A stretch of DNA of 64,000 nt from Tricholomella constricta. Its lineage: Eukaryota; Basidiomycota; Agaricomycetes; Agaricales; Lyophyllaceae. The notes below the pieces were generated by a model, which saw only the letters and a list, made by a program, of their open reading frames with translations, had not been told where the DNA came from and made no database searches. Made by a program: the position numbers and the translations under genes. How positions within the stretch are numbered: position 1 is the first letter of the stretch; every line of letters begins with the position of its first letter. The DNA lies in contig JAACJP010000037.1 in the NCBI GenBank assembly GCA_013368375.1, positions 372,001 through 436,000 on the forward strand, in the 5' to 3' direction. Below are positions 436 through 61,385 of this stretch, piece after piece.

Positions 436-3400
436 GTCGAGATCACGGCGATCTTGCACTCCTCCTCGAGTACGACCCACTAAGCTATACCCCGACTGTC
501 CTTTCTTTCTGTGAACTACCGACCGAATTTAATAGCGACGCCACCTACGACGCGCAACTAGCCTCACTCTACGTCGCGGCATCCGAACTAACCGCACCAG
601 CAATCGCCGACCAATCCGATAATACCAACTCTAACCCTCAAAAACGAACGACCCTCTGCACTATTTTACCGCACAACGAGCGCCATAGTGGACGCCACAC
701 CCAATCCCTGACCAACGCCGCCACCGACGCCTTCGTGGTGAAAATCAAAGGCGTACAAACCAAAAAGAAGTACAAACCAGTAGCGCAAAAAGTGCGATCG
801 ATCATAGCAAGTTGTCCCGACCACTTCCGCATCGAGCGCAAAATATTGGGCGACCCTCTCGCCAACATGCCGACTCTGCTCCCCAACCCGCCACCTTTCC
901 AACCCACCGGCCGCTACACTCTAGAGCGAAAAGACGACTTAGACCGTGAACACCCAGACTTCTTAACGCCCTCCGAACGAGCAATTATGCACGACCTCAT
1001 GTGTAAGCAGAATCTCGCTTTCGCATGGGACGACTCCGAACGCGGTAGTTTTCGATCGGATTTCTTTCCCCCTATCGATATCCCGGTCGTCGCACACACA
1101 CCCTGGATCGAACGAAATATCCCCATACCGCCTGGCATCTACGATGAAGTTTGCGACATTATCAAAACTAAACTCGCCGCTGGCGTTTACGAACCGTCCA
1201 ACTCCAGCTACCGATCGCGTTGGTTTTGCACTCTAAAGAAAAATGGCAAGTTCCGCCTCGTCCACAGCCTCGAACCGCTCAACCGAGTAACTATCCGACA
1301 CTCGGGGGTCACTCCGATACCAGACCATGTCGCCGAACAATTCGCCGGTCGCATTTGTGGCGCAATGTTGGACCTGTTTGTCGGCTACGACGAACGGCTA
1401 ATCGCACCATCGTCGCGCGACCTTACCACTTTCCAAACACCTTTCGGCGCGTTACGCCTAGTCACCTTACCTATGGGCTGGACCAACTCCGTCCCAATCT
1501 TCCACGACGACGTCACTCACATCCTACAACCGGAGATCCCGGACTATACACTACCTTATATCGACGACGCTGCTATAAAGGGACCAGCAACTTGGTACCC
1601 CGACCCGGACACAGGATTGCCGAAAACACACCCCGACAATGCCGATGTGCGATTCGCGATCTGGGAGTTCTTCAACAACGTCAACCGAATCCTCCAGCGC
1701 ATGAAGTACTGCGGCGGCACCTTCTCCGGCAAGAAGCTGATTTTATGCGCACCACAATTTAAAGTCCTCGGACACGTCTGCACGCCCAAGGGTCGCATAC
1801 CCGACGTGGACCGACTCGCTTTACTGCGTAATTGGAAGTCGTGCGCCACCCTATCAGAGTTACGCGCGTTTTTAGGAACAGTCGGAGTACTAAGGATATT
1901 CGTCAAAAACTTTGCTCATCGCGCACACCACCTCGTAAAACTAACTCGCAAGGACGCAGTCTTCGAATTCGGCCCCGACCAGATCGCAGCACAGCGTGAC
2001 ATCGTCGAGGCGATCGCAGAAGCGAAACCCCTCGTACCCATCGACTACGCCTCGGATGACCCCGTCATCCTGGCCGTCGACACTTCACACATAGCAGTCG
2101 GATTCTACCTCTGTCAAGCCGACCCCGTCGATCGGAAACGACGCAGATACAATCGGTTCGGTTCCATTACACTGAACGACCGCGAATCACGGTTCTCTCA
2201 ACCAAAACTCGAATTTTACGGCCTATTTCGGGCGCTTGGCGCTTTACGCCTGTACGTTATAGGCGTCCGCAACTTGGTCGTCGAAGTCGACGCGCGCTAC
2301 ATTAAAGGAATGCTCTCCAACCCCGACATCCAGCCGTCAGCTTCCATAAACAGGTGGATCGTATCTGTCCTCATGTTCCACTTCGAACTTGTCCATGTTA
2401 AAGGCACGTTCCATGGACCCGACGGTTTGTCCCGGCGCCCACGACAACCCGACGATCCAGCCGACAACTACGACGCAGAAGAAGCCGACTTCGAAGATTG
2501 GGTCGACCGAATGCAAGGACTCATGCACATTATTCAACCGCTGCCACAGCCGCCGTCGCCATTACACATATGCCAGATCTTCGCTATGGCTCAGGTCTCA
2601 AGTAAGGAGGAGATGGGGGCAGTATACACGGACGCGGTACCACCAGACTCAACGACTCACGAACTCGCAACCGATTCCCCACGACAACCCAGAATCCGTA
2701 CCGACGACGATACAGGAATAACCGACCCAAATGCGAATTCGACCGACATGTCATACGACGACGTACCCAGGACCGACGCCGCTAAAGCCCAAGACCAACG
2801 CATAGATGCGGTTAGACAATGGTTGACCAACCTCGAACGGCCAGAAGGCATGTCCGACGATCAGTACGCCACCTTCATTCGATACGCCACCGGATTCTTC
2901 CTAGACGGAACACGACTCTGGAGAAGAGATAGCCAAGGCGCACATAAACTAGTCGCCCGCCCCAATGCACGATTAGAGATTCTGCGATCCGTCCACGACA
3001 ACCTCGGACATAAGCGCTTCTACGCGACACGCGCAACCTTGCTCGAACGCTTCTGGTGGCCTAATGTTCGGGCCGACGTCGTGTGGTTCGTACAGACATG
3101 TCACATATGCCAGATCCAGCAAACGACCAAGGTCCTGATCCCCCCGGTCGTTGCGACACCCGCGCCACTGTTTGCAAAAATGTACATCGACACTATGCAC
3201 CTACCGCCGTCGAATGGTTTCAAATACATTGTCCAAGGTCGTTGCTCCTTGATTCACTTTCCTGAATGGCGCGCGCTCCGAAAGGAAAACAGTCGCACCC
3301 TCGGCGATTGGATGTACGAAGACATCATCTGCCGGTGGGGCGGACTGCGCGAAATCGTAACCGACAACGGCCCAGCCTTCATCAAAGCCGCCGAACACCT

Positions 3401-4178
3401 CACAAAGAAATACCACATACACAACATTCGGATCTCAGGTTACAACTCTAGAGCCAACGGGCTAGTCGAGCGATCCCACTTCGACGTCCGGCAATCTCTT
3501 TTCAAAGCCGCCGACGGAATCGAAAATAAATGGTCGCAAGCCGCCTACTCCGTTTTCTGGGCGGAACGCGTCACAATCCGCAAACGAATGGGATGTTCCC
3601 CCTACTACGCTGCGACAGGCACGCAGCCCCTCCTGCCACTCGATATCGTCGAAGCCACGTACCTCCAACCGCCACCCGACTCAATACTGTCCTCCACCGA
3701 CCTCTTGACACGACGCGCGATCGCCCTACAAAAACGAACGACCGACCTAGAGCGACTGCATTCAGACGTATACGCGGCGCGACGACAAGCGGCGATTCGC
3801 TTTGAGCTTCAACACGCCAGAACCTTGCGCGACTATAACTTTAAACGCGGAGACCTCATCCTCATGCGCAACACGAAAATCGAGAAGTCGCTCAACCGCA
3901 AAATGCGATCTAGATACCTAGGTCCGCTCGTTGTGATCTCACGCAACCGTGGAGGCGCCTACATCCTCTGCGAATTGGATGGCACCGTCTTACACCGGCC
4001 TGTAGCAGCGTTCCGACTCACCCCCTACTTCGCGCGAAATAATATTCTCCTACCCGATAACGCGCTGGACATAGACACCAAACGACTCCGAGAACTAGAG
4101 GCGACGACGATCACCGACAATGAAGACCGACCCGAAGTCGTAAGCGACGACTCGGAGTCGGAAGAAGAGCAGAACTGA
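411..4178 (+). CDS. Pol of element 1: RT, RNase H, integrase
   Basis: The frame is open from before 411 to the stop at 4178, about 1250 codons; there is no obvious own ATG, so it is probably made as a fusion with the upstream protease by frameshifting. RT: conserved blocks run from about 1140 to 1600, with the catalytic YIDD at 1557-1568. RNase H: about 2060-2440, with VDTS, PKLE and VEVDAR carrying acidic residues. Integrase: HHCC zinc finger (H..H, CHIC) near 2990-3110, then the D,D,E core at YIDTMH (3183), TDNGPAF (3361) and LVERSHF (3463). The C-terminus has no chromodomain. No in-frame stop is seen, so this copy may be young. An 18-nt copy of the 3' PPT lies within the tether between RNase H and integrase. 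Confidence 0.85.
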   Translation, partial: FSYTLEEISRDHGDLALLLEYDPLSYTPTVLSFCELPTEFNSDATYDAQLASLYVAASELTAPAIADQSDNTNSNPQKRTTLCTILPHNERHSGRHTQSLTNAATDAFVVKIKGVQTKKKYKPVAQKVRSIIASCPDHFRIERKILGDPLANMPTLLPNPPPFQPTGRYTLERKDDLDREHPDFLTPSERAIMHDLMCKQNLAFAWDDSERGSFRSDFFPPIDIPVVAHTPWIERNIPIPPGIYDEVCDIIKTKLAAGVYEPSNSSYRSRWFCTLKKNGKFRLVHSLEPLNRVTIRHSGVTPIPDHVAEQFAGRICGAMLDLFVGYDERLIAPSSRDLTTFQTPFGALRLVTLPMGWTNSVPIFHDDVTHILQPEIPDYTLPYIDDAAIKGPATWYPDPDTGLPKTHPDNADVRFAIWEFFNNVNRILQRMKYCGGTFSGKKLILCAPQFKVLGHVCTPKGRIPDVDRLALLRNWKSCATLSELRAFLGTVGVLRIFVKNFAHRAHHLVKLTRKDAVFEFGPDQIAAQRDIVEAIAEAKPLVPIDYASDDPVILAVDTSHIAVGFYLCQADPVDRKRRRYNRFGSITLNDRESRFSQPKLEFYGLFRALGALRLYVIGVRNLVVEVDARYIKGMLSNPDIQPSASINRWIVSVLMFHFELVHVKGTFHGPDGLSRRPRQPDDPADNYDAEEADFEDWVDRMQGLMHIIQPLPQPPSPLHICQIFAMAQVSSKEEMGAVYTDAVPPDSTTHELATDSPRQPRIRTDDDTGITDPNANSTDMSYDDVPRTDAAKAQDQRIDAVRQWLTNLERPEGMSDDQYATFIRYATGFFLDGTRLWRRDSQGAHKLVARPNARLEILRSVHDNLGHKRFYATRATLLERFWWPNVRADVVWFVQTCHICQIQQTTKVLIPPVVATPAPLFAKMYIDTMHLPPSNGFKYIVQGRCSLIHFPEWRALRKENSRTLGDWMYEDIICRWGGLREIVTDNGPAFIKAAEHLTKKYHIHNIRISGYNSRANGLVERSHFDVRQSLFKAADGIENKWSQAAYSVFWAERVTIRKRMGCSPYYAATGTQPLLPLDIVEATYLQPPPDSILSSTDLLTRRAIALQKRTTDLERLHSDVYAARRQAAIRFELQHARTLRDYNFKRGDLILMRNTKIEKSLNRKMRSRYLGPLVVISRNRGGAYILCELDGTVLHRPVAAFRLTPYFARNNILLPDNALDIDTKRLRELEATTITDNEDRPEVVSDDSESEEEQN
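2598..2615 (+). promoter_or_regulatory. Candidate central polypurine tract in pol
   Basis: The 18 nt TCAAGTAAGGAGGAGATG are identical to the polypurine tract before the 3' LTR (8273-8290). Retroviruses such as HIV-1, and yeast Ty1, use an internal PPT copy as a second plus-strand primer; this role is inferred here from identity and position only. Confidence 0.5.
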
Positions 4179-4663
4179 TCGACATTCCGCGAAACCATAT
4201 ACCCTCCCTTTTAATCAGCACCCTTCTCACCGACACACACCGTTCGACCGACCGAATATACCGACGACCTATGCTCTCATTTTTCAGTTCCGACCCAAAC
4301 CGACCATACCCCGATTCGCGTTTACGATTCACTATGTTCCGACCAAAACTCCACTCAATCTCACTTTCCACCAAATCTTTCGTCACTTAATCGCCCAAAA
4401 AAAAAAAAGAAAATCAACACCGGACGTATTATATTATATAGCGGTTCCATAAAGGACCGCCCAGACGCAGACCACAAGAAAAAACAAAATGTACAAAGGC
4501 CGAGCGAGCGACCAAGATCCCAAGCGCGCCCAAGCCGACCGACACCCGACGACGCGACCACCGCCTGCTCACCCCATTACGACGTCGCCACCTCAATCCC
4601 GTCACCACCCTCCGCGATTCCGTCGTCTCTCGCCGTCGCCCTCAGCATCTTCATCGTCGGTGC
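4179..4663. other. Gene-free spacer after pol of element 1
   Basis: No supported gene. It holds an A-rich run (AAAAAAAAAAAAGAAAA, about 4391-4407), a short AT-rich TATATT stretch near 4430-4440 and C-rich low-complexity sequence. It separates convergent transcription of pol (+) and the opposite-strand gene ending at 4664, so it may hold both 3' ends. Confidence 0.5.
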
Positions 4664-6411
4664 TCACAGCGCTCCCTTCACTCGAGCCAGACTCGCCCAG
4701 CCCGTTCCTCGAGCCAACTCCGAACGCCGTTCATGGAGCGCTCTCAAGGCATCCAGCGTACCGGTGACTTGCTGGTAAACAGGCGCAGCTGCCAGCCGAA
4801 TCAGCTCCTGACGGGACTCCAGAACCTGCGTCTCCTGCACCAGTGTCCGAAGGAAAGAGTTGCGCGCGAAGAGGGCGCGATCCACGTCGTTAAGACCGAA
4901 CTTCTCCACGATCGACGTCGGCACCAGTACCCCAGACCCTCCAAGTCCTCGTTGTAGAGCGGAGCCTCCGCGTTAGGTAAACTCTCCCTGCGACAAGAAG
5001 TCCAGCCCCATACCTGCAGAACCGTCGGACTGGACCATCAGGAGGTGATGGACGGCGGCCGCTAGTTGGCGTTCGCGGGCCCGAACCTCTGCCACGGACG
5101 GAGGCGGCGGGTGGCGCACCACGAGCGAGGGTGCGACCACAGGCTTTTGCTCCTCGGCCTCCTCGACTGTGGGGCGCGACAAAGGGCGACGCCGCGACCG
5201 CGAACCTGAAGCCACTGGGACGCCGGCCGGCGCACTGTCGCGGACTGTCTCGCACTTCTTGGCATGTATCTTGCAGAGCGCGCAGATACCACCGTCCGGC
5301 TTCTGAAGGCAATCGACGCCGGCGTCCATGCAACGGTCGCACTTGGAAAGAAGTGAGTGCAAAAAAGAAAAAGACAAGACACGATTAAAGACCTACGGGC
5401 ACGTCGCGCACGAAGTGATTGGGGCACTTCTTCTTGAAGTCCTCCAGACGCGAAAGCCATTTATCGCCGGTCGCGCGCCGCTTCCCCTTTGCCTTCACCG
5501 GTTCCTCCTCGAAGACGTCCCCGACCGACACTTCTCCGTCGTCCGCGACGTCGCGCTTGCGCTTGCGAACCGGAGACGCGACCTCGTTCCCGTCGTTGGC
5601 GGCAGGCGTCGTTTCTGCCAAACTTGTTAGTGGCAGACCACTGACGGGGCTGAAAACGAGCCCCGATCGATGAGCGGACTCACGCGCGCGACGAGACCGC
5701 GGTGTCGGGAGTACAGACTGCGGAACGTTAGTGATTCAACCACGATAAACTAAGTACACAAGACCCACTTCCAAAACACCGTCGCTAACGGCCTGCGACC
5801 CACCACCGACCGACCTACGGGGCATGTAGACGAAGGGACGAGGAGGTTTGCCTTTTCCTTTGGCCTTCGGTGCTACGGAAACGCCGGGTAAAGACCCACC
5901 CATGACCAACGGCGGGGTCGCCCCCTCGCTACCGCGCACCGGCGCCGCCCCTTCGCCGCCGCAACCGGCTCGGCGGACAACCCTCCCTCAAGCCCCACAG
6001 TCACGGCCGGTGGCGCTGGCCCAGCGCTTCGTGCAGCGTCCGACAGGAGGCGTCGCTCGCGACGCCGGCGGGTGTATTCGTCCTGAGGGATGACCACCAC
6101 AAGTCAGTTACCCGCGCACCAACGAACAGGAACGAACACACCTCGGGCTCTAAAGCTGCAAAATTTTTCTTCCACTCCTCATCGTCCTTAATGCGCGACC
6201 ATATCAGGGTCAGCGCTTCCTGCTCCTCCCGCCATTCCACCCGTCCAGGACCCGCCCCTTGGTTGCGCAGCGCGGCCAGGCCGTCCCGGATATCTTCGAG
6301 CGCCTCAGTGCGCTGTTCGCGAGTAGCGTCGACGGGCAGTTGACACCACCGGACGTAGTCCGTGCTCAGATAACGAAGGACGCGCTTGAAGTCCGAAATG
6401 GCAGCAGTCAT
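4664..6411 (-). pseudogene. Opposite-strand Zn2Cys6-like gene in element 1, copy 2 (decaying)
   Basis: Paralogue of the gene at 6811-8107. Model: complement(6411-6142, 6082-5769, 5717-5397, 5341-4664); every junction has GT/AG and CTRAC-like branch sites. Exon 1 encodes exactly 90 codons, as in the other copy, and the first intron starts with the same GTGTGTTC. Exon 4 opens with the cysteine cluster C-x2-C-x6-C-x8-C-x2-C-x6-C (CDRC...CALC), again right after an intron. Exon 2 changes frame near 5935, and exon 4 has two frame changes (near 4980 and 4945) before the conserved C-terminal helix (VDRALFAR, FLRTLVQE, VLESRQEL). I read this as a copy accumulating indels. Function is unknown; a nucleic-acid-binding role is inferred from the cysteine spacing only. 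Confidence 0.6.
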
Positions 6412-6554
6412 GGTGGTTGAAAAAGACAGGGAACCGAAAAAGGGAGGCGTCACTTTAAACAAGCTGGGATGCGCCATCAAAATTCAGTTGCACCGCCACC
6501 GCCGTCTCACGCCACACACGCGTCCGTTCTAGAATTCTCTCGACCGGCCTCCGG

Positions 6555-6597
6555 ACCGACTGAGGGCAGTCGGCATTTCAAGTCAGGAGGAGACATG
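6555..6597 (+). repeat. Internal duplicate of the PPT region of element 1
   Basis: This 43-nt stretch (GACCGACTGAGGGCAGTCGG followed by TTCAAGTCAGGAGGAGACAT) is nearly identical to 8249-8293, which ends in the polypurine tract before the 3' LTR. A short inverted repeat (GACTGAGGGCAGTC) sits in both. It marks the left edge of a tandem duplication that copied one opposite-strand gene together with the PPT region. Confidence 0.65.
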
Positions 6598-6810
6598 ACC
6601 GGCAGATTGAGAGGTGGCCGACGCCAGTGACAGACACCGCCGATGATAAAACCGACCGACACGACGAACCGACCTGCGCCACTAAAAACACGAAAAGTTT
6701 GAACTATAAAGAACGACCCGATTTTAGGGCCCGCACGACAAAACAGGTATATACGGAATACGCGACCGACAACGAGCGCAACCCGACCGCACAACACGCC
6801 AGACCCGGAG

Positions 6811-8107
6811 TCAAGACGACGAACCTTCGCCACAACCTTCGCCACCATTGTCGCGGACGCCACCGCCGACACCGCTACCCCCACTTCGCGCGTTATCCGT
6901 CGCAGACACACCGATTAACTCTGCGCGACGGGCCTGAAGCAAATCAAGGGCCGTCGACGTAGATGCGACCTGCTGGTAAAGCTGACGAGCCGACGAACGC
7001 ATGATCTCTTGGCGCGATTCGAGGACTTGAGCTTCCTGGACCAAAGTGCGCAGGAAAACGGTACGCGCCGATAGCGCCCGATCTACATCCGCAAGATCGA
7101 ACCGCGAAATAACCGACAACGGCTGGGTGAAGCCCAAGCCACGCAAATCTTCGTTATGGAGAAGGTCATCGAGGCGAAGCAACGGACCCTGATAAAAGAA
7201 ACCCGCGTCCCGGTCCGCCGAACTCGCGGAACGAGTCGCGACAAGGCGCTGGGCGACCCTCGCCAGATCGGGCGAACGAACCTCGTCAAACAACGGAGGT
7301 GTGCACACATCGCAAGAGTGTTCCTCTACTGAGCACGACACAAACTGGTGCGGAGCCTGCAGAAACGACCCCACCTCGTTCGTCTCACATTGCCTGGATT
7401 GGAGTTCGCAAACCGCGCAAGCGTCATTTCCGATACGCTGAACGCAGTCCAAACCGTAGCTCACGCAGCGATCGCACTAGCCAACGAATGAGCAGAAGAA
7501 CGAAGCCACACGAGAACCGACGACTTACCGCTTCACTACGAGTGTAATGCTCGGGGTATTCCTTCCTAAATTCCTCGAGACGCTCCAGCCACGAATCGTG
7601 TCGCCTCCCTTGCGCCGCCAATACCGACTCCCCAGAAATCTCGACTACGGACTCTTCCTCGTCCGCGTCCCCAACAGAGGGAGCGCACGTACATTCCCGA
7701 ACGACAGGCTCGGCCCCTTCTCCAACAGAGGCGGCGCGCGCAGGCTCCCGAACGACCGACCGACGATGGGGGTAATCAGACTGTAAACCAGCACGTCAGT
7801 CACCAAAAACGACCGAACCACCAAAGGGTGAACACACATCCGGTTGCAGATCCGCAAACCGCTCGGACCATTCCGGGTCGGACGCGATCGTAGACCATAT
7901 GGCGAGCAATGCCTCTCCCTCGTCGCGCCACATCCAACGCCAGGGGCTAGCTGCCGGCGACCTAAGCACTCCGACGCTGTTTGACAAGTACTGCAGCACG
8001 CGGGTGCGCGCGTAACGAGGCGAGTCGGCCGACAGCGATTGCCATTCGTCCCAGTCTCGTTCCAAGAAGCGGAGAGTACGCTGAAGATCGACAGGAGGTC
8101 TCGACAT
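6811..8107 (-). CDS. Opposite-strand Zn2Cys6-like/coiled-coil gene in element 1, copy 1 (intact)
   Basis: Model: complement(8107-7838, 7780-7529, 7476-6811), 395 aa with one frame across three exons. Introns of 57 and 52 nt have GTGTGT/CAG and GTAAGT/TAG ends. Residues 1-90 are a helical Trp-rich domain (EALLAIWSTI). Residues 91-174 are acidic and disordered, then WLERLEEFRKEYPEHY. Residues 175-204 form C175-x2-C-x6-C-x8-C-x2-C-x6-C204, the exact spacing of fungal Gal4-type Zn2Cys6 clusters, though the usual Lys/Arg residues between the cysteines are few. A CDVC pair follows near residue 230, then a long helix (VDRALSAR, FLRTLVQE, VLESRQE). It lies head-on to pol, inside the element. It could regulate element transcription or act as a structural accessory; no known family was identified. 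Confidence 0.7.
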
Positions 8108-8126: not shown

Positions 8127-8166
8127 AAAAAAAAAAAAAAAAAAAAAAAAACCCTGGATATATATA
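8127..8166 (-). promoter_or_regulatory. TATA box and poly(T) leader of the opposite-strand gene
   Basis: Reading the minus strand, TATATATAT (8166-8158) lies 51 nt before the ATG at 8107, and a run of 25 T follows (8151-8127). This looks like an autonomous promoter for the opposite-strand gene, about 120 nt inside the PPT. Confidence 0.5.
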
Positions 8167-8272
8167 CGTCGCCAGCACGTCGGCACCGCCACCTCCTCCT
8201 ATCCCTACCCTTCTTTTCCAAGACGTACGCCCCCTGACCGATGCACGAGACCGACTGAGGACAGTCGGTATT

Positions 8273-8290
8273 TCAAGTAAGGAGGAGATG
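8273..8290 (+). promoter_or_regulatory. Polypurine tract of element 1
   Basis: The purine-rich TCAAGTAAGGAGGAGATG directly precedes TGATGAACACC, a plausible LTR start with TG. It primes plus-strand DNA synthesis in LTR elements. An identical 18 nt occurs in pol (2598-2615) and a near copy at 6577-6596. Confidence 0.65.
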
Positions 8291-9196
8291 ATGAACACCG
8301 TCCCGCGCTGTACACCGAACCTACCCATAATACGGACATCAACCGCTGCGCCACGACGAACACGGCCCCGAATACGATCAAAGCGCTAAACGGACCGACT
8401 GACAATACGACCGACCGACCGACAATACGACCAAATGACCGACGCACCGACCAAGAGACAAAGTAACTTGAAACGCCAGTTCTCTTCTCTGGGCGCACGG
8501 AGCACGGAACGCCGTATAACCTGTCAACGACCGCGCACGTTTGTATGCCAAGGTCTCAACCCGGCGACAACCAAACCCGATTTGAAATGATCTTAGGAAA
8601 CGCCGTTGCCCAGCCAGTCGCAGGAAGGATCCGGCCGTACCACGGAGTTCCGCACCCAAGAGCCACTACCGATCGCAAAGCCACCACCGATCATACATCC
8701 GACCCGACGCCTCGAGCCGATCAACAGCCCCTTTGCCGAGCCGAAGAGCGCCACACTCTCTAAAAAGCATCGCGCGGTACCAAGCTTGGCAGCGCTTCTC
8801 CCAATAAACCAGTAAAACACCTGCCTCGCCGGCTCGCGCGAGGCGAGTCGGTCGTATAGTATAAAAACATACCCGTGTATTACCTACTTCGCCCAGTGAA
8901 TTACAGCCCGTATTTTCCCTCACTCTCAGAGTTAATAGCTCAAAGCCGTCGTCTCTGTCGTCTCCGCATCGTTCTCATCGTATAACCCGTCGCCACCGTC
9001 GTAAACCTCGTAACCGTCGTCTCTGTCGTCTCGTAACCGTCGCCCGAACCCGTGAGTTCTTCGTATTCGTCTCGTTCGTCTCGTTGTCGCACAACCGACA
9101 CAAAGGTCGTGTTACCGACCCGTTCCGCCTGGGAACAATCGTATTCTATCGCGTCGCCGTCGGCTCGACTAATTACGAGTCGGATCGTCTTTACTC
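8289..9196 (+). repeat. 3' LTR of element 1 (right edge uncertain)
   Basis: It starts after the PPT. It contains a GC-rich inverted repeat CTCGCC...GGCGAG at 8824-8848, then the TATA box TATAAAAA (8860-8867). From 8940 to 9075 it has irregular repeats of CGTCTCTGTCGTCTC and CGTAACCGTCGT, typical of R/U5 leader sequence. The end is not defined. An 86-codon opposite-strand frame (8940-9200) is low complexity (Thr/Arg repeats) and is not taken as a gene. Confidence 0.5.
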
Positions 9197-9523
9197 TCAT
9201 CCCACCACCACTTTCAAACCCTGCACACTCGCGTGTTTGGGAACTTTTAACATTTCTCGCCCCCCATAGTTGTTAGTTGTTTTGTTGTTGTGCACAGCAC
9301 CTACAGGCCTTCTAGCTCTATCAGCGTGCATTGATAGTAGCTCCAGGCTACTTACCGCTGTTGGTCCCTCTGCTGCTGCTACACCTTGCCCGACTTCGTC
9401 CGAACGACGTTGAGGCGGCACATAGGCTATAGGAGGTCGCGGTACCGGCGGATCGACGATAGATTGTATCGTTGGTGTGTTTTCAGAGCTGGTAGCGCTC
9501 GGTGGCGCTCGGTTTGGATCCAT
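9197..9523 (-). CDS. 5' end of an unidentified, probably truncated gene
   Basis: A Met at 9523 (MDPNRAPPSATSS) starts a Pro/Ser-rich, disordered reading frame. After about 55 codons it meets a consensus donor GTAAGT (minus strand, near 9355), so the remaining codons are probably intron. No matching downstream exon was found before the LTR of element 1, so the rest may have been cut off by that insertion. It is not recognisable as a known family; a Gag N-terminus of another element is an alternative. Confidence 0.3.
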   Translation of the reverse strand: MDPNRAPPSATSSENTPTIQSIVDPPVPRPPIAYVPPQRRSDEVGQGVAAAEGPTAVSSLELLSMHADRARRPVGAVHNNKTTNNYGGREMLKVPKHASVQGLKVVVG

Positions 9524-9739: not shown

Positions 9740-12700
9740 CAAAGGATTATCTAAGCATAAACTGTACAGGACATTTATATACGCATAACAAAGATGGTCG
9801 TGCATTACCAGAAGGTAATGCCAAACAGGTCGCTTCTCAATATAGACGTATTGTAACGCGCCGTCGTTACAGATATGTTGTAGACGCGGTTCTACGCTAT
9901 GACGGTCACTCCGAACGGGTGCTGTTCGCAGTCGCAGGCATCGGGAAGCAGGATCTCATCCTCGGATTCACCTGGCTTCGAGACCACAACCCCGACATTG
10001 ATTGGGCGACGAAGAGGGTGAAAATGAGTCGGGCGCCGTCGCGTTGCGACACCTGCAAGGTTGAGGCCAAGGAAGAGCGGCGCTCGCGCACCAAACTGCG
10101 ACCTGCCATTCGGGCCTGTCGGGCGGAAGGATTTCCGACCACAGAGCCGGATCTGCGTGCCCCGACCAGCCCCTACGTCGAGGACGACTCTGACATGGAT
10201 GAATTCCTCCCCTACACCCCAGTCATGGAGGAACCCGATCCAGAGTCGGACGACTTCCTTGCGGAGACCTTCCTGAACGGCGACCGCATCTTTGCGACTG
10301 CGATCCACCCTCCTCCGACTGTGGCGCACATCCGTGCCAGTTAAACGACATCGCAGCGACTCGCGGAAGCGCATGCCGCGAACTCTGTGCCCAAGTCGTT
10401 CCGCGACGCCGTTCCGACCCACCTCCATGACTTTGAGGACGTTTTCTCCAAGGTCGCGTTTGACGAACTCCCCGATCGCAAACAGTGGGATCACGCGATT
10501 GAGTTGGAGCCGGGCGCTTCGCCGTCCGGCACCAAAGTCTACCCACTGTCGCCGGCGGAGCAAGTCGAGCTCGATGCGTTCCTCAAGGAGAACCTCGAGT
10601 CGGGTCGGATCCGTCCGTCGAAGTCACCCATGGCTTCGCCAGTGTTCTTCATCAAGAAGAAGGATGGTGCGCTCCGGCTGGTGCAGGACTATCGGACGCT
10701 CAACGCGCTTACGGTGAAGAACCGGTACCCACTACCACTCATTAGCGAACTGGTGAACAACCTCCGCGGCGCGCGGTACTTCACCAAGCTGGACGTCCGA
10801 TGGGGGTACAACAACGTTCGGATCAAGGAAGGCGACGAGTGGAAGGCAGCGTTTCGGACGAACCGCGGTCTCTTTGAGCCGCTCGTCATGTTCTTCGGCC
10901 TCACGAACAGCCCCGCCACATTCCAGACCATGATGAATGACATCTTCCGCGATCTGATCGCCGAGGGTGTTGTTTGCGTGTACCTCGACGATATCTTGAT
11001 TTACACCAAGACTCTCGAGGAACACCGTCGGGTCGCGCGACTCGTACTGGACCGACTCCGCGAACATAAGTTGTTCTTAAAACCCGAGAAATGCGAGTTC
11101 GAACAGACCAAGGTCGAGTATCTTGGGCTGATCATCTCGCACGGGCAAGCGGAAATGGATCCGGTCAAGGTCGCTGGAGTGTCGGAGTGGCCGGCGCCGA
11201 GGAACAAGAAGGAGGTGCAAGCGTTCTTGGGCTTCACCAATTTCTACCGACGGTTCATCCAGGACTTCTCGCACCACGCCCGACCCCTGTTCGATCTGAC
11301 GGGCAAGGATGTTGCCTGGCGCTGGGAAGCGTCGGAACAGTCGGCCTTTGACCTCCTGAAGTCTGCGATCACGTCGCGACCAGTGCTTGCATTCCCCGAC
11401 GACGACCGACCGTACCGCATCGAAGCTGATTCGTCCGACTTTGCGACGGGCACGGTCCTGTCACAAGAGTCGCCATCTGATGGCAAGTGGCACCCGGTCG
11501 CGTTCTACTCGAAGAGCTTGAACGCAGTCGAGCGGAACTACGAGATCCATGACAAGGAGATGCTGGCGATCATCCGGTCTCTGGAGGAGTGGCGACATTT
11601 TGTGGAAGGCGCAAAGCACAAGGTAGTGATCTTGACCGACCACAAAAACCTTGAGTACTTCCTCACCGCGAAGAAACTCAATCGGCGGCAAGCCCGCTGG
11701 TCGCTCTACCTCGCCAACTTCGACTTCACCCTCCACCACCGTCCGGGACGCAGCATGGGCAAACCCGACGCCCTGTCGCGTCGCGCTGACCACGGCGACG
11801 GAAGTGGCGACAATGCTGACATTGTGCTCCTCAAACCCGAGTTCTTCGCGATCCGCGCGACCGAAGGTCTGGTACTGGTCGGAGAAGAAGACGATGTGCT
11901 GAAGGCGATTCGCAAGGGCAATCGCGACGGCGCACAGGAGGACGCGGTCGCGAAAGCAGCGCAACTGGTCAAGGCATCCAAGACTGCCGGTCGCTCCCTA
12001 CGCTTCGGCGAGTGGGGGGAGGAAGGCGGTCTGCTCACGTTCCGTGGACGGATCTATGTCCCAAACGTTCCTGACCTTCGCCGACGCATTGTGGAACAAC
12101 ACCACGACTCCAAGATCGCCGGTCACCCGGGTCGCTGGAAGACGTTAGAGCTGGTGTCGCGCAACTACTGGTGGCCTCAGATGTCGCGCTTTGTCGGTTC
12201 CTACACCAGCACCTGCGACATGTGCTTGCGCACGAAACCCCGCCGCCAACTCCCCGTCGGACAGCTGCAGCCGCTCCCAATCCCCGAAGGTCGATGGAAC
12301 GTCGTATCGGTGGACTTCATCACTGAGCTCCCTGAGTCCAACGGCCACGACGCGATCATGAACGTCGTGGATTCGGTCGGAAAGCGAGCGCACTTCATTG
12401 CATCGCACACAACCTGTTCGGCCTTGGGAGCTGCCAACCTCTACCGTCGTCACGTCTGGAAGCTGCACGGTCTCCCCGACGCATTCGTCTCCGATCGAGG
12501 TCCACAGTTCGTAGCCGAGTTCACGCGCGAGCTGTACCGACTCCTGCGTATCAAGCTGTCAGCTTCGACGGCGTACCACCCGCAGACCGACGGGCAGACT
12601 GAGCGCGTCAACCAGGAGCTGGAACAATTCCTGCGGGTCTTCTGCAACGAGCGCCAGAACAACTGGGAGGACCTGTTGCCCGACGCCGAATTCAGTTACA

Positions 12701-13447
12701 ACAACCATGTACACTCGGCGACGCAACAGACCCCCTTCCTGCTCGACACTGGTCGGCATCCGCGCATGGGCTTTGAGCCGCGTCAGGGCGCTTCCAAGAA
12801 TGAGTCAGCCGAAGAGTTCGTGGAGCGCATGAAGGAAGCCCAGGAGGAAGCCAAGGCGGCGCTTGCAAAGGCAAAGGACGACATGGAGCGGTATTACAAC
12901 CAGCGACACACCCCCGCGCCCGACTACCAGCCTGGCGACAAGGTGTACTTGGACGCGACCGACATTTCTACGACCCGACCATCTAAGAAGTTGTCGCATT
13001 GCTACCTCGGCCCTTTCGTCGTGCAAAGGCGAGTCGGCCCGCTCGCATATCGCCTTCTGTTGCCTCAGTCCATGAAGCGCATCCATCCGGTCTTCCACGT
13101 CGTAAAGCTTGTCCCCGCCGTCGCGGACCCCATCGAAGGTCAGCAGTCTGATCCACCGCCCGCCCCCAGATATCATCAACGACGAGCCCCACTACGAAGT
13201 CCACAAAATCCTCGACAGCCGCATCTTTCGCAAGAAACTCCAGTACAAGATCTTGTGGAAAGGCTACGGCTACGAAGAAGCTTCGTGGGAGCCCCGGGAG
13301 AATGTCGTCGCCCCCGACCTGTTGCGCAAATTCCACCGCGACAATCCCGATGCTGCGCGCCACATCCGTGGCATCTTCACTCTGTCCCCCGCCGTCTTCG
13401 CCACCGTCACCCCGCACCGAGCCGTTGCGATTCAAGAGGGGGGGTGA
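9740..13447 (+). pseudogene. Chromovirus Pol (protease-RT-RNase H-integrase-chromodomain), inactivated
   Basis: Element 2. Protease-like homology starts around 9745 (KDYLS, NKDGR) and becomes clear at 9901 (HSERVLFAV, LILGFTWL). An in-frame TAA at 10342-10344 splits an otherwise continuous frame; one C-to-T change of a Gln codon would explain it. RT runs about 10550-11000 with YLDD at 10981-10992; RNase H about 11410-11790 (IEADSS, DKEML, TDHKN); integrase HHCC at 12090-12240 and D,D,E at VDFITEL, SDRGPQF, TERVNQE. After the integrase C-terminus the frame slips by one base in a C-run near 13160. The chromodomain follows in the next frame (YEVHKILDSR, ILWKGYG, SWEPRENV) up to 13446. GC content drops left of about 9885, which suggests a hybrid or rearranged 5' part; gag and the 5' LTR are missing. 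Confidence 0.8.
13431..13447 (+). promoter_or_regulatory. Polypurine tract of element 2
   Basis: AAGAGGGGGGGTGA lies between the chromodomain stop and the LTR start TGTTAGGG, the usual place and composition of a Gypsy PPT. Confidence 0.6.
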
Positions 13448-13916
13448 TGTTAGGGGAACTCCCTTTCGCGCCCTCCGACGCTCACCGATCGTCCCCCCGC
13501 TCATGCGATCACTCCCCCGACCGTTCGCGATCCCGACCCCCGACGCTCCGACCCAAGCGTCGGTGTATATACTTACACACTTCCTGTCGTTCCCATCTCT
13601 CCCTGCACGCGCCCGACGCCGATCCCGACCACCCGACATCCCGACGTCGGCTGTCCCAACTCGTGCCCGTACCCTGAGCCATGAGGATCGGACAGCGTCG
13701 GGAACGTGTCCATACACGCGCCGCAGACCATTCCTTGATTATTATGTACAGTACTCGTATATAGTCGGCCCACTGGCATTGGGGATCCTTAGTCTATTCT
13801 CTTCGGATTCCCCTCTGCCAGGTAAGCCCCTCTTTACATTCCTCACTGTACTTAATATAACTTCGGATTCCCCTCTGCCAGTACGACTCAGCTCTGCTCG
13901 TGAGGTCGCCCTAACA
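13448..13916 (+). repeat. 3' LTR of element 2 (469 bp)
   Basis: It begins TGTTAGGG and ends CCCTAACA, a perfect 8-bp terminal inverted repeat. A hairpin CCGACGCT...AGCGTCGG is at about 13540-13564, followed by TATATAC. A 20-bp direct repeat (TTCGGATTCCCCTCTGCCAG) occurs at about 13803 and 13863, an internal duplication. A related LTR lies at 60998. The flanking GCGCC (13917-13921) would be the target-site copy, but the 5' LTR is absent so this cannot be tested. Confidence 0.8.
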
Positions 13917-60997: not shown

Positions 60998-61385
60998 TGT
61001 TAGGGGAACGCCCGTTCACGCCCTCCGACGCTCACCGACTGTCCCCCGACATGTGCGATCGCTCCCGACCGATCGCGCCCCCGAACCCCGACGCTCCGAC
61101 CCAAGCGTCGGTGCACATACTTATACATCCCTGTCGCTACCTCCCCTTCCAGCGCGCGCCCGATCCCGACATCCAATATCCTGACGTCCGACATCCCGAC
61201 GTCGGTCGCCCGACCTCGTGCCCGCACCCTGAGCCACGAGGATTGGACAGTGTCGGGAACGTGTACATACACGCGCCGCTGCCCATCCGTTATCATTTAC
61301 GTACCATACACCCCAGAGAGCCGGCCCTCACGTATCTTACTCGTATATAGTCGTCCTCCTGACATGGGGGAATCCTTTACTCTAT
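60998..61385 (+). repeat. Element-2-type LTR, interrupted
   Basis: Begins TGTTAGGGGAACGCCCG and is collinear with the LTR at 13448-13916 (shared GCCCTCCGACGCTCACCGA, CGACGCTCCGACCCAAGCG, CCTGAGCCA, GGGAACGTGT, ACGCGCCGC, CTCGTATATAGTCG). Homology stops at about 61385, about 120 bp before the expected end, exactly where another LTR starts. No PPT precedes it, so it is a solo or 5' LTR. Confidence 0.75.

What the first reader, a model, noticed from the sequence alone, without database searches (positions are those of the whole stretch)
4664..8107. Spliced opposite-strand genes with a Zn2Cys6-like cluster inside a Gypsy element
Between pol and the 3' LTR of element 1 lie two tandem multi-exon genes on the other strand. 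The intact copy encodes 395 aa with C-x2-C-x6-C-x8-C-x2-C-x6-C, the exact spacing of Gal4-type clusters, starting exactly at an exon boundary, followed by a helical region. It has its own TATA box. Clean introns on this strand mean it is transcribed and spliced as an independent gene, not as part of the element RNA. A retroelement that carries a regulator-like gene in reverse would be an unusual cargo system.
Basis: partly seen in the sequence, partly recalled or inferred. Interest (0 to 1): 0.88.

Follow-up and report, generated by a model that had tools for sequence, protein, structure and literature searches.

The report
Spliced antisense gene pair in retrotransposon
A family of retrotransposons in what looks like a mushroom-type fungus carries, backwards behind its enzyme gene, two intron-containing genes for zinc-cluster-like proteins that almost all copies possess and that are shuffled between copies, which looks like a built-in control system of the jumping gene rather than a stray passenger.

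Summary
Behind pol of this roughly 12.7-kb Gypsy element lie two tandem spliced genes on the other strand: B (8107-6811, 3 exons, 395 aa, intact) and A (about 6411-4569, about 5 exons, broken here). Of 81 integrase copies counted in the host genome, 77 have a match to such a gene on the opposite strand within 7 kb. The last exon opens with C-x2-C-x6-C-x8-C-x2-C-x6-C in 18/18 A and 18/19 B models. Both proteins are under purifying selection (dN/dS 0.28 and 0.30). B has a TATA box in 18/19 copies; one short promoter motif precedes both genes. Gene A seems exchanged between elements: two copies with pol dS 0.000 differ by A dS 0.84 and B dS 0.40. Two sister-family elements lack the cassette. Best reading: trans-acting regulators of the element's own LTR, inferred, not shown. 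Antisense accessory ORFs are known from plant Grande/RIRE2/Retand and fungal Boty, so this is a new variant. The cluster does not pass Pfam's Gal4-cluster test.

The parts
735..4178 (+). pol (RNase H, integrase; RT by position and homology) of the Gypsy element; part of an open frame of up to 1295 aa in other copies
   Evidence: ORF; Pfam RT_RNaseH, Integrase_H2C2; other copies
4569..6411 (-). antisense gene A: exons about 6411-6142, 6082-5769 (one of two possible donors), 5717-5684, 5614-5397, 5341-4569; broken at least in the last exon in this copy; appears exchanged between elements
   Evidence: spliced models of 18 copies; stop read by eye from the sequence
5252..5341 (-). six-cysteine cluster of gene A at the start of its last exon
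6490..6499 (-). promoter 10-mer GTGGCGGTGC upstream of gene A
6811..8107 (-). antisense gene B: exons 8107-7838, 7780-7529, 7476-6814 and stop; 395 aa, intact
   Evidence: spliced models in other copies
7387..7476 (-). six-cysteine cluster of gene B, starting at the first codon of exon 3
8159..8166 (-). TATA box of gene B, about 57 nt upstream of the ATG
   Evidence: present in 18 of 19 copies
8183..8192 (-). promoter 10-mer GTGGCGGTGC upstream of gene B
8281..8288 (+). polypurine tract GGAGGAGA before the 3' LTR; further copies at 2606 (in pol) and 6586 (upstream of gene A)
   Evidence: all three in 9 of 9 elements
8289..9323 (+). 3' LTR (TGATGA...TATCA); probable 5' LTR outside the window at C37:368611-369639
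   Evidence: ends read by eye
8393..8443 (+). tandem array in U3 built on CGACCGAC (CGG triplets on the other strand); candidate target of the A/B proteins
   Evidence: TRF; motif counts

Best explanation
A Gypsy retrotransposon family of what looks like an agaric-type fungus carries, between pol and the 3' LTR, a standing two-gene accessory module in antisense. SHOWN by sequence: two paralogous gene models, each with an N-terminal domain, a six-cysteine cluster that opens the last exon and a C-terminal part; introns at the same places; promoter-like elements of their own; purifying selection; presence in nearly all counted copies including very young ones; gene A much more diverged than pol, LTR and B between the same elements. 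INFERRED: both are transcribed from their own promoters and spliced; the antisense orientation lets the introns survive, because the sense genomic RNA that is reverse transcribed is not spliced at them; the proteins are nuclear, dimerise by a C-terminal helix and bind the element's own control DNA (candidate: the CGACCGAC array in U3), where they activate the LTR or keep it from being silenced; gene A, the most variable, is moved between elements by recombination and is the part under pressure from the host or from rival elements. My split: real conserved protein genes about 0.95; acting on the element's own expression about 0.5; positive rather than negative action only slightly favoured.
For: 77 of 81 counted integrase copies with an opposite-strand match (72, 5 more by eye). 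LTR pairs of copies with the module: C10 100%, C16 100%, C20 99.8%, C3 99.2% (of 8 family copies looked at, C12 has 89.9% and three gave no clear pair); 4-bp target duplications in C10, C16 and C20, not in C3 and C12. dN/dS 0.30 (B, 13 intact copies, 76 pairs) and 0.28 (A, 10 copies, 43 of 44 pairs) against medians of 0.94-1.40 in four other frames. B spliced frame intact in 16 of 19 copies. Cluster at the exon start in 36 of 37 gene models; six Cys invariant in 15 chosen last exons. Intron 1 is less alike than exon 1 in six elements (62-72% against 82-94%). TATA in 18 of 19 B; GTGGCGGTGC before both genes and absent from 7 of 8 5' stretches. Basic, NLS-like stretches and an acidic tail in A, by eye. 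U3 array, absent from the LTRs of two sister-family elements without the module.
Against: No RNA, protein or binding data. The splice aligner demands GT-AG and was led by a query whose last exon begins with the cluster, so exon starts are not wholly independent. Intron 2 is hardly less alike than its exons (74-88%). A is intact in only 10 of 18 models. The U3 array may serve a host factor, and the motif is also raised in other parts of the element (pol 0.6, antisense region 1.8, spacer 3.5 per kb). LTR sequence does not follow gene A type (p 0.21, 15 non-duplicate copies; best of 13 windows p 0.005; with duplicates p 0.07 and two windows at 0.001). One B type (C7) lacks cluster and TATA. The cluster does not pass Pfam Zn_clus.
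Confidence: 0.5

Rival explanations
1. Negative self-control: A/B are repressors that limit copy number or exclude rival elements, and gene A types are different exclusion specificities, like immunity regions of phages (analogy recalled).
For: Gene A falls into about five types by my naming, found on backbones that are far more alike; the promoter motif shared by A and B suggests common control.
Against: LTRs do not follow the A type; one genome holds many copies of several types side by side, so exclusion would be weak.
Confidence: 0.2
2. The proteins act after transcription, in nuclear entry or in steering integration (tether), as proposed for accessory proteins of plant elements.
For: Basic stretches and cysteine clusters fit DNA or chromatin contact; precedent proposals in PMC7264820.
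Against: Such a role would not need independent spliced antisense expression; no insertion-site preference was tested.
Confidence: 0.15
3. The antisense RNA itself, not the protein, regulates the element, as Ty1 antisense RNA does (passage in PMC5389150).
For: The orientation makes double-stranded RNA possible.
Against: Protein-level constraint in the coding frame and its mirror frame only, invariant cysteines, conserved intron places.
Confidence: 0.07
4. Captured host gene carried as a passenger, or an artefact of one insertion.
For: Regulator-like cysteine spacing. 17 of the 147 matches had no counted integrase copy beside them; three of these (on C11, C33, C57) lie beside LTR copies, the others were not followed up, so a host relative is not excluded.
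Against: 77 of 81 copies hold it in the same place and strand; selection across 13 B and 10 A copies.
Confidence: 0.05

Closest known systems
[quoted passage not shown] PMC7264820, PMC11963269)
   Same: Place, orientation, presence in most copies, promoter of its own (Grande), nuclear or DNA-binding suggestion
   Different: Here two tandem intron-containing gene models with a six-cysteine cluster, gene A apparently exchanged between elements; no sequence relation shown. I saw no report of introns in the plant antisense ORFs in what I read ('intron' does not occur in PMC11963269)
Boty-like elements of Botrytis cinerea with antisense gene brtn (Zhao et al. 2011, seen only as a citation)
   Same: Fungal Gypsy element with an extra antisense gene
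   Different: The paper was not read; no sequence comparison made; the Boty-like gag-pol has a chromodomain (passage); no paired genes or zinc cluster mentioned in what I saw
VANC anti-silencing proteins of Arabidopsis VANDAL transposons (PMC5735166, abstract)
   Same: Would be alike if A/B act on the element's own non-coding DNA: element-encoded, diverging proteins, targets that often form tandem repeats
   Different: No homology tested or shown; there targets vary between related elements, here the candidate array does not follow gene A type
Gal4-type Zn2Cys6 regulators (Pfam PF00172)
   Same: Cysteine spacing, basic residues in one half, a helix predicted further on
   Different: Below the Pfam cut-off in natural order; the basic half seems to come second, not first
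Antisense HBZ gene of HTLV-1 (recalled; HTLV antisense promoter mentioned in PMC7264820)
   Same: Antisense regulatory gene in a retroelement
   Different: HBZ is a bZIP protein driven from the 3' LTR (recalled); here internal promoters and six-cysteine clusters

Membership tests
Ty3/Gypsy LTR retrotransposon | LTRs, PBS, PPT, gag, RT-RNase H-integrase order, target duplication | tested here: met
   LTRs 1.03-1.04 kb in 5 copies, PPT, and a 4-bp duplication in 3 of 5 copies; RNase H and integrase domains; long gag-protease frame in L013; the tRNA match of the PBS was not tested
[quoted passage not shown]
   77 of 81 copies
Retand / TRP28 antisense ORF | TRP28 (transposase 28) domain | tested here: not met
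   no such Pfam match in gene B or in 15 last exons; full-length gene A not scanned
Gal4-type Zn2Cys6 protein (PF00172) | C-x2-C-x6-C-x5-12-C-x2-C-x6-8-C spacing (recalled) | tested here: met
   36 of 37 gene models
Gal4-type Zn2Cys6 protein (PF00172) | score over the Pfam cut-off (21 bits) | tested here: not met
   no Zn_clus match in 15 last exons at E up to 1; natural-order pieces of true sequence 12.9-20.0 bits; one piece with a mistyped flank gave 22.6, its true sequence 20.0 and the whole exon 14.4
Gal4-type Zn2Cys6 protein (PF00172) | binds two zinc ions and CGG triplets | not testable with these tools
   needs protein
Boty brtn | sequence homology to BRTN | not tested
   sequence not at hand, paper not read
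VANC-like anti-silencing protein | loss of silencing at target DNA | not testable with these tools
   needs expression and chromatin assays

The most novel reading that the evidence does not exclude
Gene A is an exchangeable specificity module: a family of zinc-cluster regulators whose types are older than the pol and LTR sequences they now travel with, kept side by side and shuffled by recombination among retrotransposon backbones, so that elements differ in control type as phages differ in immunity type or VANDALs in VANC type, while gene B is the more constant partner.
Probability: 0.22. Interest if true: 0.9.

Novelty: new variant of a known kind. Interest (0 to 1): 0.72.

Why it matters
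For antisense accessory ORFs of LTR retrotransposons the review and paper I read give no proven function. Here is a system with young copies, two genes, conserved introns and promoter motifs, and a ready-made natural experiment: near-identical backbones with different gene A types. It makes testable whether retrotransposons encode their own transcriptional control in trans. It would also show in nature what the antisense-intron reporter trick (recalled) uses in the laboratory: reverse orientation lets introns survive reverse transcription.

Tried and rejected
Passenger or chance insertion: made unlikely by the family-wide count. Sense-strand ORF under the antisense genes: none of 120 aa or more. 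A known domain: none over its cut-off in Pfam for gene B or for 15 last exons (Lentiviral_Tat at E 0.013 is below its cut-off and taken as chance); no PDB sequence match below E 0.2; no fold match at E 0.001 or better for the N-terminal domain (model pLDDT 85.9 from two rows); exon 3 model poor (48.5) apart from a long C-terminal helix. Each A type fitted to its own LTR: not supported. Half-swapped cluster: putting the second half first raises Zn_clus to 23.0 bits for B (15.0 natural) and 20.8 for A1 (14.5), but not clearly for A3 (15.4 against 15.1) or the C7 type (19.6 against 20.0); a lead only. Relatives elsewhere: a gene A last exon and the 15-row alignment found none in the protein database (3727 and 7994 candidates), while pol found 1390 among 7995; pol was not found in viral contigs. 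Full-length gene B could not be searched. The spread of the cassette in other species stays unknown, and the word-based search may miss quickly evolving proteins.

Full report
What is there. The window is G000:C37:372001-436000 of a 44.1-Mb assembly. The Gypsy element enters from the left; a 96% LTR match that is probably its 5' LTR lies outside the window at C37:368611-369639, and its 3' LTR is at window 8289-9323 (ends by eye). That the host is a mushroom-type fungus is an inference: 157 KDZ transposase matches (that KDZ marks such fungi is recalled), 22 fungal zinc-cluster places, and relatives of pol named from Mycena and Agrocybe.

Gene B. On the minus strand, ATG at 8107, GT-AG introns of 57 and 52 nt, 395 aa. 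I fetched 18 other antisense regions of the family and modelled all 19 with a spliced aligner. B keeps a full spliced frame in 16 of 19: 13, and 3 more (376 aa) once a misplaced intron was corrected. L035 has a frameshift and L038 a stop; the C7-type copy L020 could not be modelled with this query. Intron 1 is 57-61 nt in 17 of the 18 modelled genes and 56 in the other; intron 2 is 51-57 nt.

Gene A. A tandem paralogue next to B on the same strand. By model it has five exons in the window and in several A1 copies; the aligner gives 4 to 8 exons in other copies, where the middle is uncertain. Of 18 modelled copies 10 are intact, 530-545 aa (one of the ten lacks the ATG at the expected place). 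The window copy is broken at least in the last exon. In A as in B the last exon opens with the six-cysteine cluster: 18 of 18 A and 18 of 19 B models. The aligner was led by a query with that exon start, so this is not a fully independent result. The 19th B, of the C7 type, shows no cluster, while the C7 gene A does. In 15 chosen last exons the six cysteines and parts of a C-terminal signature are invariant.

Family-wide. The window's exon 3 has 147 matches in the genome, its own place included (150 of 174 candidates scored; 133 without a stop); an integrase piece has 106 (150 of 196). From the 106 I took 81 rows and left out 25: rows of 30-50% identity, second pieces of copies already counted, and separate short fragments (C72:7257, C20:264349 and the C24:534 kb pair). 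Of the 81, 72 have an opposite-strand match within 7 kb downstream. Five more gain one, by eye, with the hits, making 77. C47:209760 has one at 7.3 kb; C6:1443331, C16:735932 and C19:610366 (same-strand match only) have none. Four other rows show an additional same-strand match at 5.9-6.4 kb, where a neighbouring element stands. Seventeen of the 147 matches had no counted integrase copy beside them. Two sister-family elements (integrase about 50% identical) have 355-361-bp LTRs that follow the end of pol closely, with no cassette. Four of eight family copies looked at have LTRs 99.2-100% alike; C12 has 89.9%, three gave no clear pair.

Selection. For pairs under 97% protein identity, median dN/dS is 0.30 for B (76 pairs, 13 copies) and 0.28 for A (43 of 44 pairs, 10 copies); four other frames lie at 0.94-1.40. 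The mirror frame is low too (0.36, 0.43), as expected from third positions that line up. These sets were chosen for intact frames. Pol over its last 589 codons is far more constrained, at 0.056 (24 of 28 pairs with dS above 0.05).

Exchange of gene A. In eight elements compared, C12 and C2 have pol dS 0.000, yet A dS 0.84 and B dS 0.40; C3 and C16 have pol 0.165, B 0.121 and A 1.81 (38% amino-acid identity). C12 and C3 have broken A genes read across the damage; the pair C2 and C16, both intact, has pol 0.328, B 0.336 and A 1.26. Along the DNA, identity with the window falls to about 50-56% in the A region of C3 and C37b; matches stop at 4176-4215 (5353 for C16 and C20) and resume at 6419-6545, near the A start codon. 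I name types A1-A4 plus the C7 type by similarity. Recombination between element lineages is the simplest reading; no formal recombination test was made.

Own promoters. B has TATAWA within 160 nt upstream in 18 of 19 copies, A in 0 of 18 (shuffle rates 3.6% and 1.5%). TGGCGGTGC lies 62-97 nt upstream in 18 of 19 B and 18 of 18 A; the 10-mer GTGGCGGTGC is absent from 7 of 8 5' stretches, and the eighth reaches a neighbouring element's cassette. Intron 1 is less alike than exon 1 in six elements; intron 2 is hardly less alike than its exons. No RNA evidence was at hand.

A candidate target. The LTR has a tandem array near position 100-150 built on CGACCGAC. The motif stands at 6.1 per kb in LTRs against 0.09 in the rest of the window, but is also raised in other parts of the element (0.6 in pol, 1.8 in the antisense region, 3.5 in the spacer). 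Three or more within 80 nt occur in 16 of 19 LTR stretches, two of which duplicate others; the exceptions are C19, C28 and the partial C7 stretch. In an order-5 null trained on the element, 5 of 300 sequences reach three and none four. The two sister LTRs have none. The C7 U3 no longer aligns but has two copies at 92 and 116. That the array is bound by A or B is a guess from CGG triplets (recalled) and is the point to test. LTR distances do not follow A types (p 0.21 over 15 non-duplicate copies; 0.07 with duplicates).

Is it Gal4-like? Spacing yes, Pfam family no: none of 15 last exons matches Zn_clus at E up to 1, and natural-order pieces of true sequence score 12.9-20.0 bits against a cut-off of 21. 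For B and A4 the first half aligns to the second half of the profile, so the basic half seems to come second. I therefore call it a six-cysteine cluster of Gal4-like spacing.

Why antisense. An intron-bearing gene in sense would lose its introns through the spliced genomic RNA; in antisense they are not recognised. This is the logic of retrotransposition reporters (recalled), applied here as inference.

Known kin. Plant Grande, RIRE2 and Retand carry antisense ORFs in the same place; the review says their roles are undetermined and that Grande gene23 has its own promoter and a nuclear product (PMC7264820, parts 1 and 2 of 3 read; PMC11963269, abstract, Discussion and passages). Boty of Botrytis carries antisense brtn (Boty named in the review; brtn in citations and passages of PMC8365987 and PMC4227169). 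My searches for a fungal element with such genes (listings only) showed none with paired spliced antisense zinc-cluster genes; the library lacks most subscription papers. VANC is cited from its abstract.

Verdict. The mechanism remains inference.

Noticed in passing
window 2606, 6586, 8281: Three polypurine tracts GGAGGAGA are conserved in 9 of 9 elements: inside pol, upstream of gene A and before the 3' LTR; internal plus-strand primers are suggested.
   Followed up: partly
window 6555-6590 and 8250-8288; L026, L028: A stem-loop (CCGACTG-AGGA-CAGTCGG, one mismatch in two of the internal copies) stands just before the internal and the 3' PPT; two sister-family elements have a stem of different sequence but the same shape before their PPT, as compensatory change would give (by eye).
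   Followed up: partly
G000:C11:898268-904662: A 6.4-kb LTR-to-LTR derivative holds gene B and part of gene A matches but no pol match among the rows listed.
   Followed up: no
L020 (C7-type element): A subfamily whose gene B lacks the zinc cluster and the TATA box while its gene A keeps the cluster; its U3 is not alignable with the others.
   Followed up: partly
L009/L010 (C12): A copy with LTRs only 90% alike and no target duplication, whose flanks look like sequence of other copies: nested or recombinant (by eye).
   Followed up: no
window 10387-13677: A second, ordinary Gypsy pol follows element 1; repeats at 13495-13754 recur at 61043-61309.
   Followed up: no
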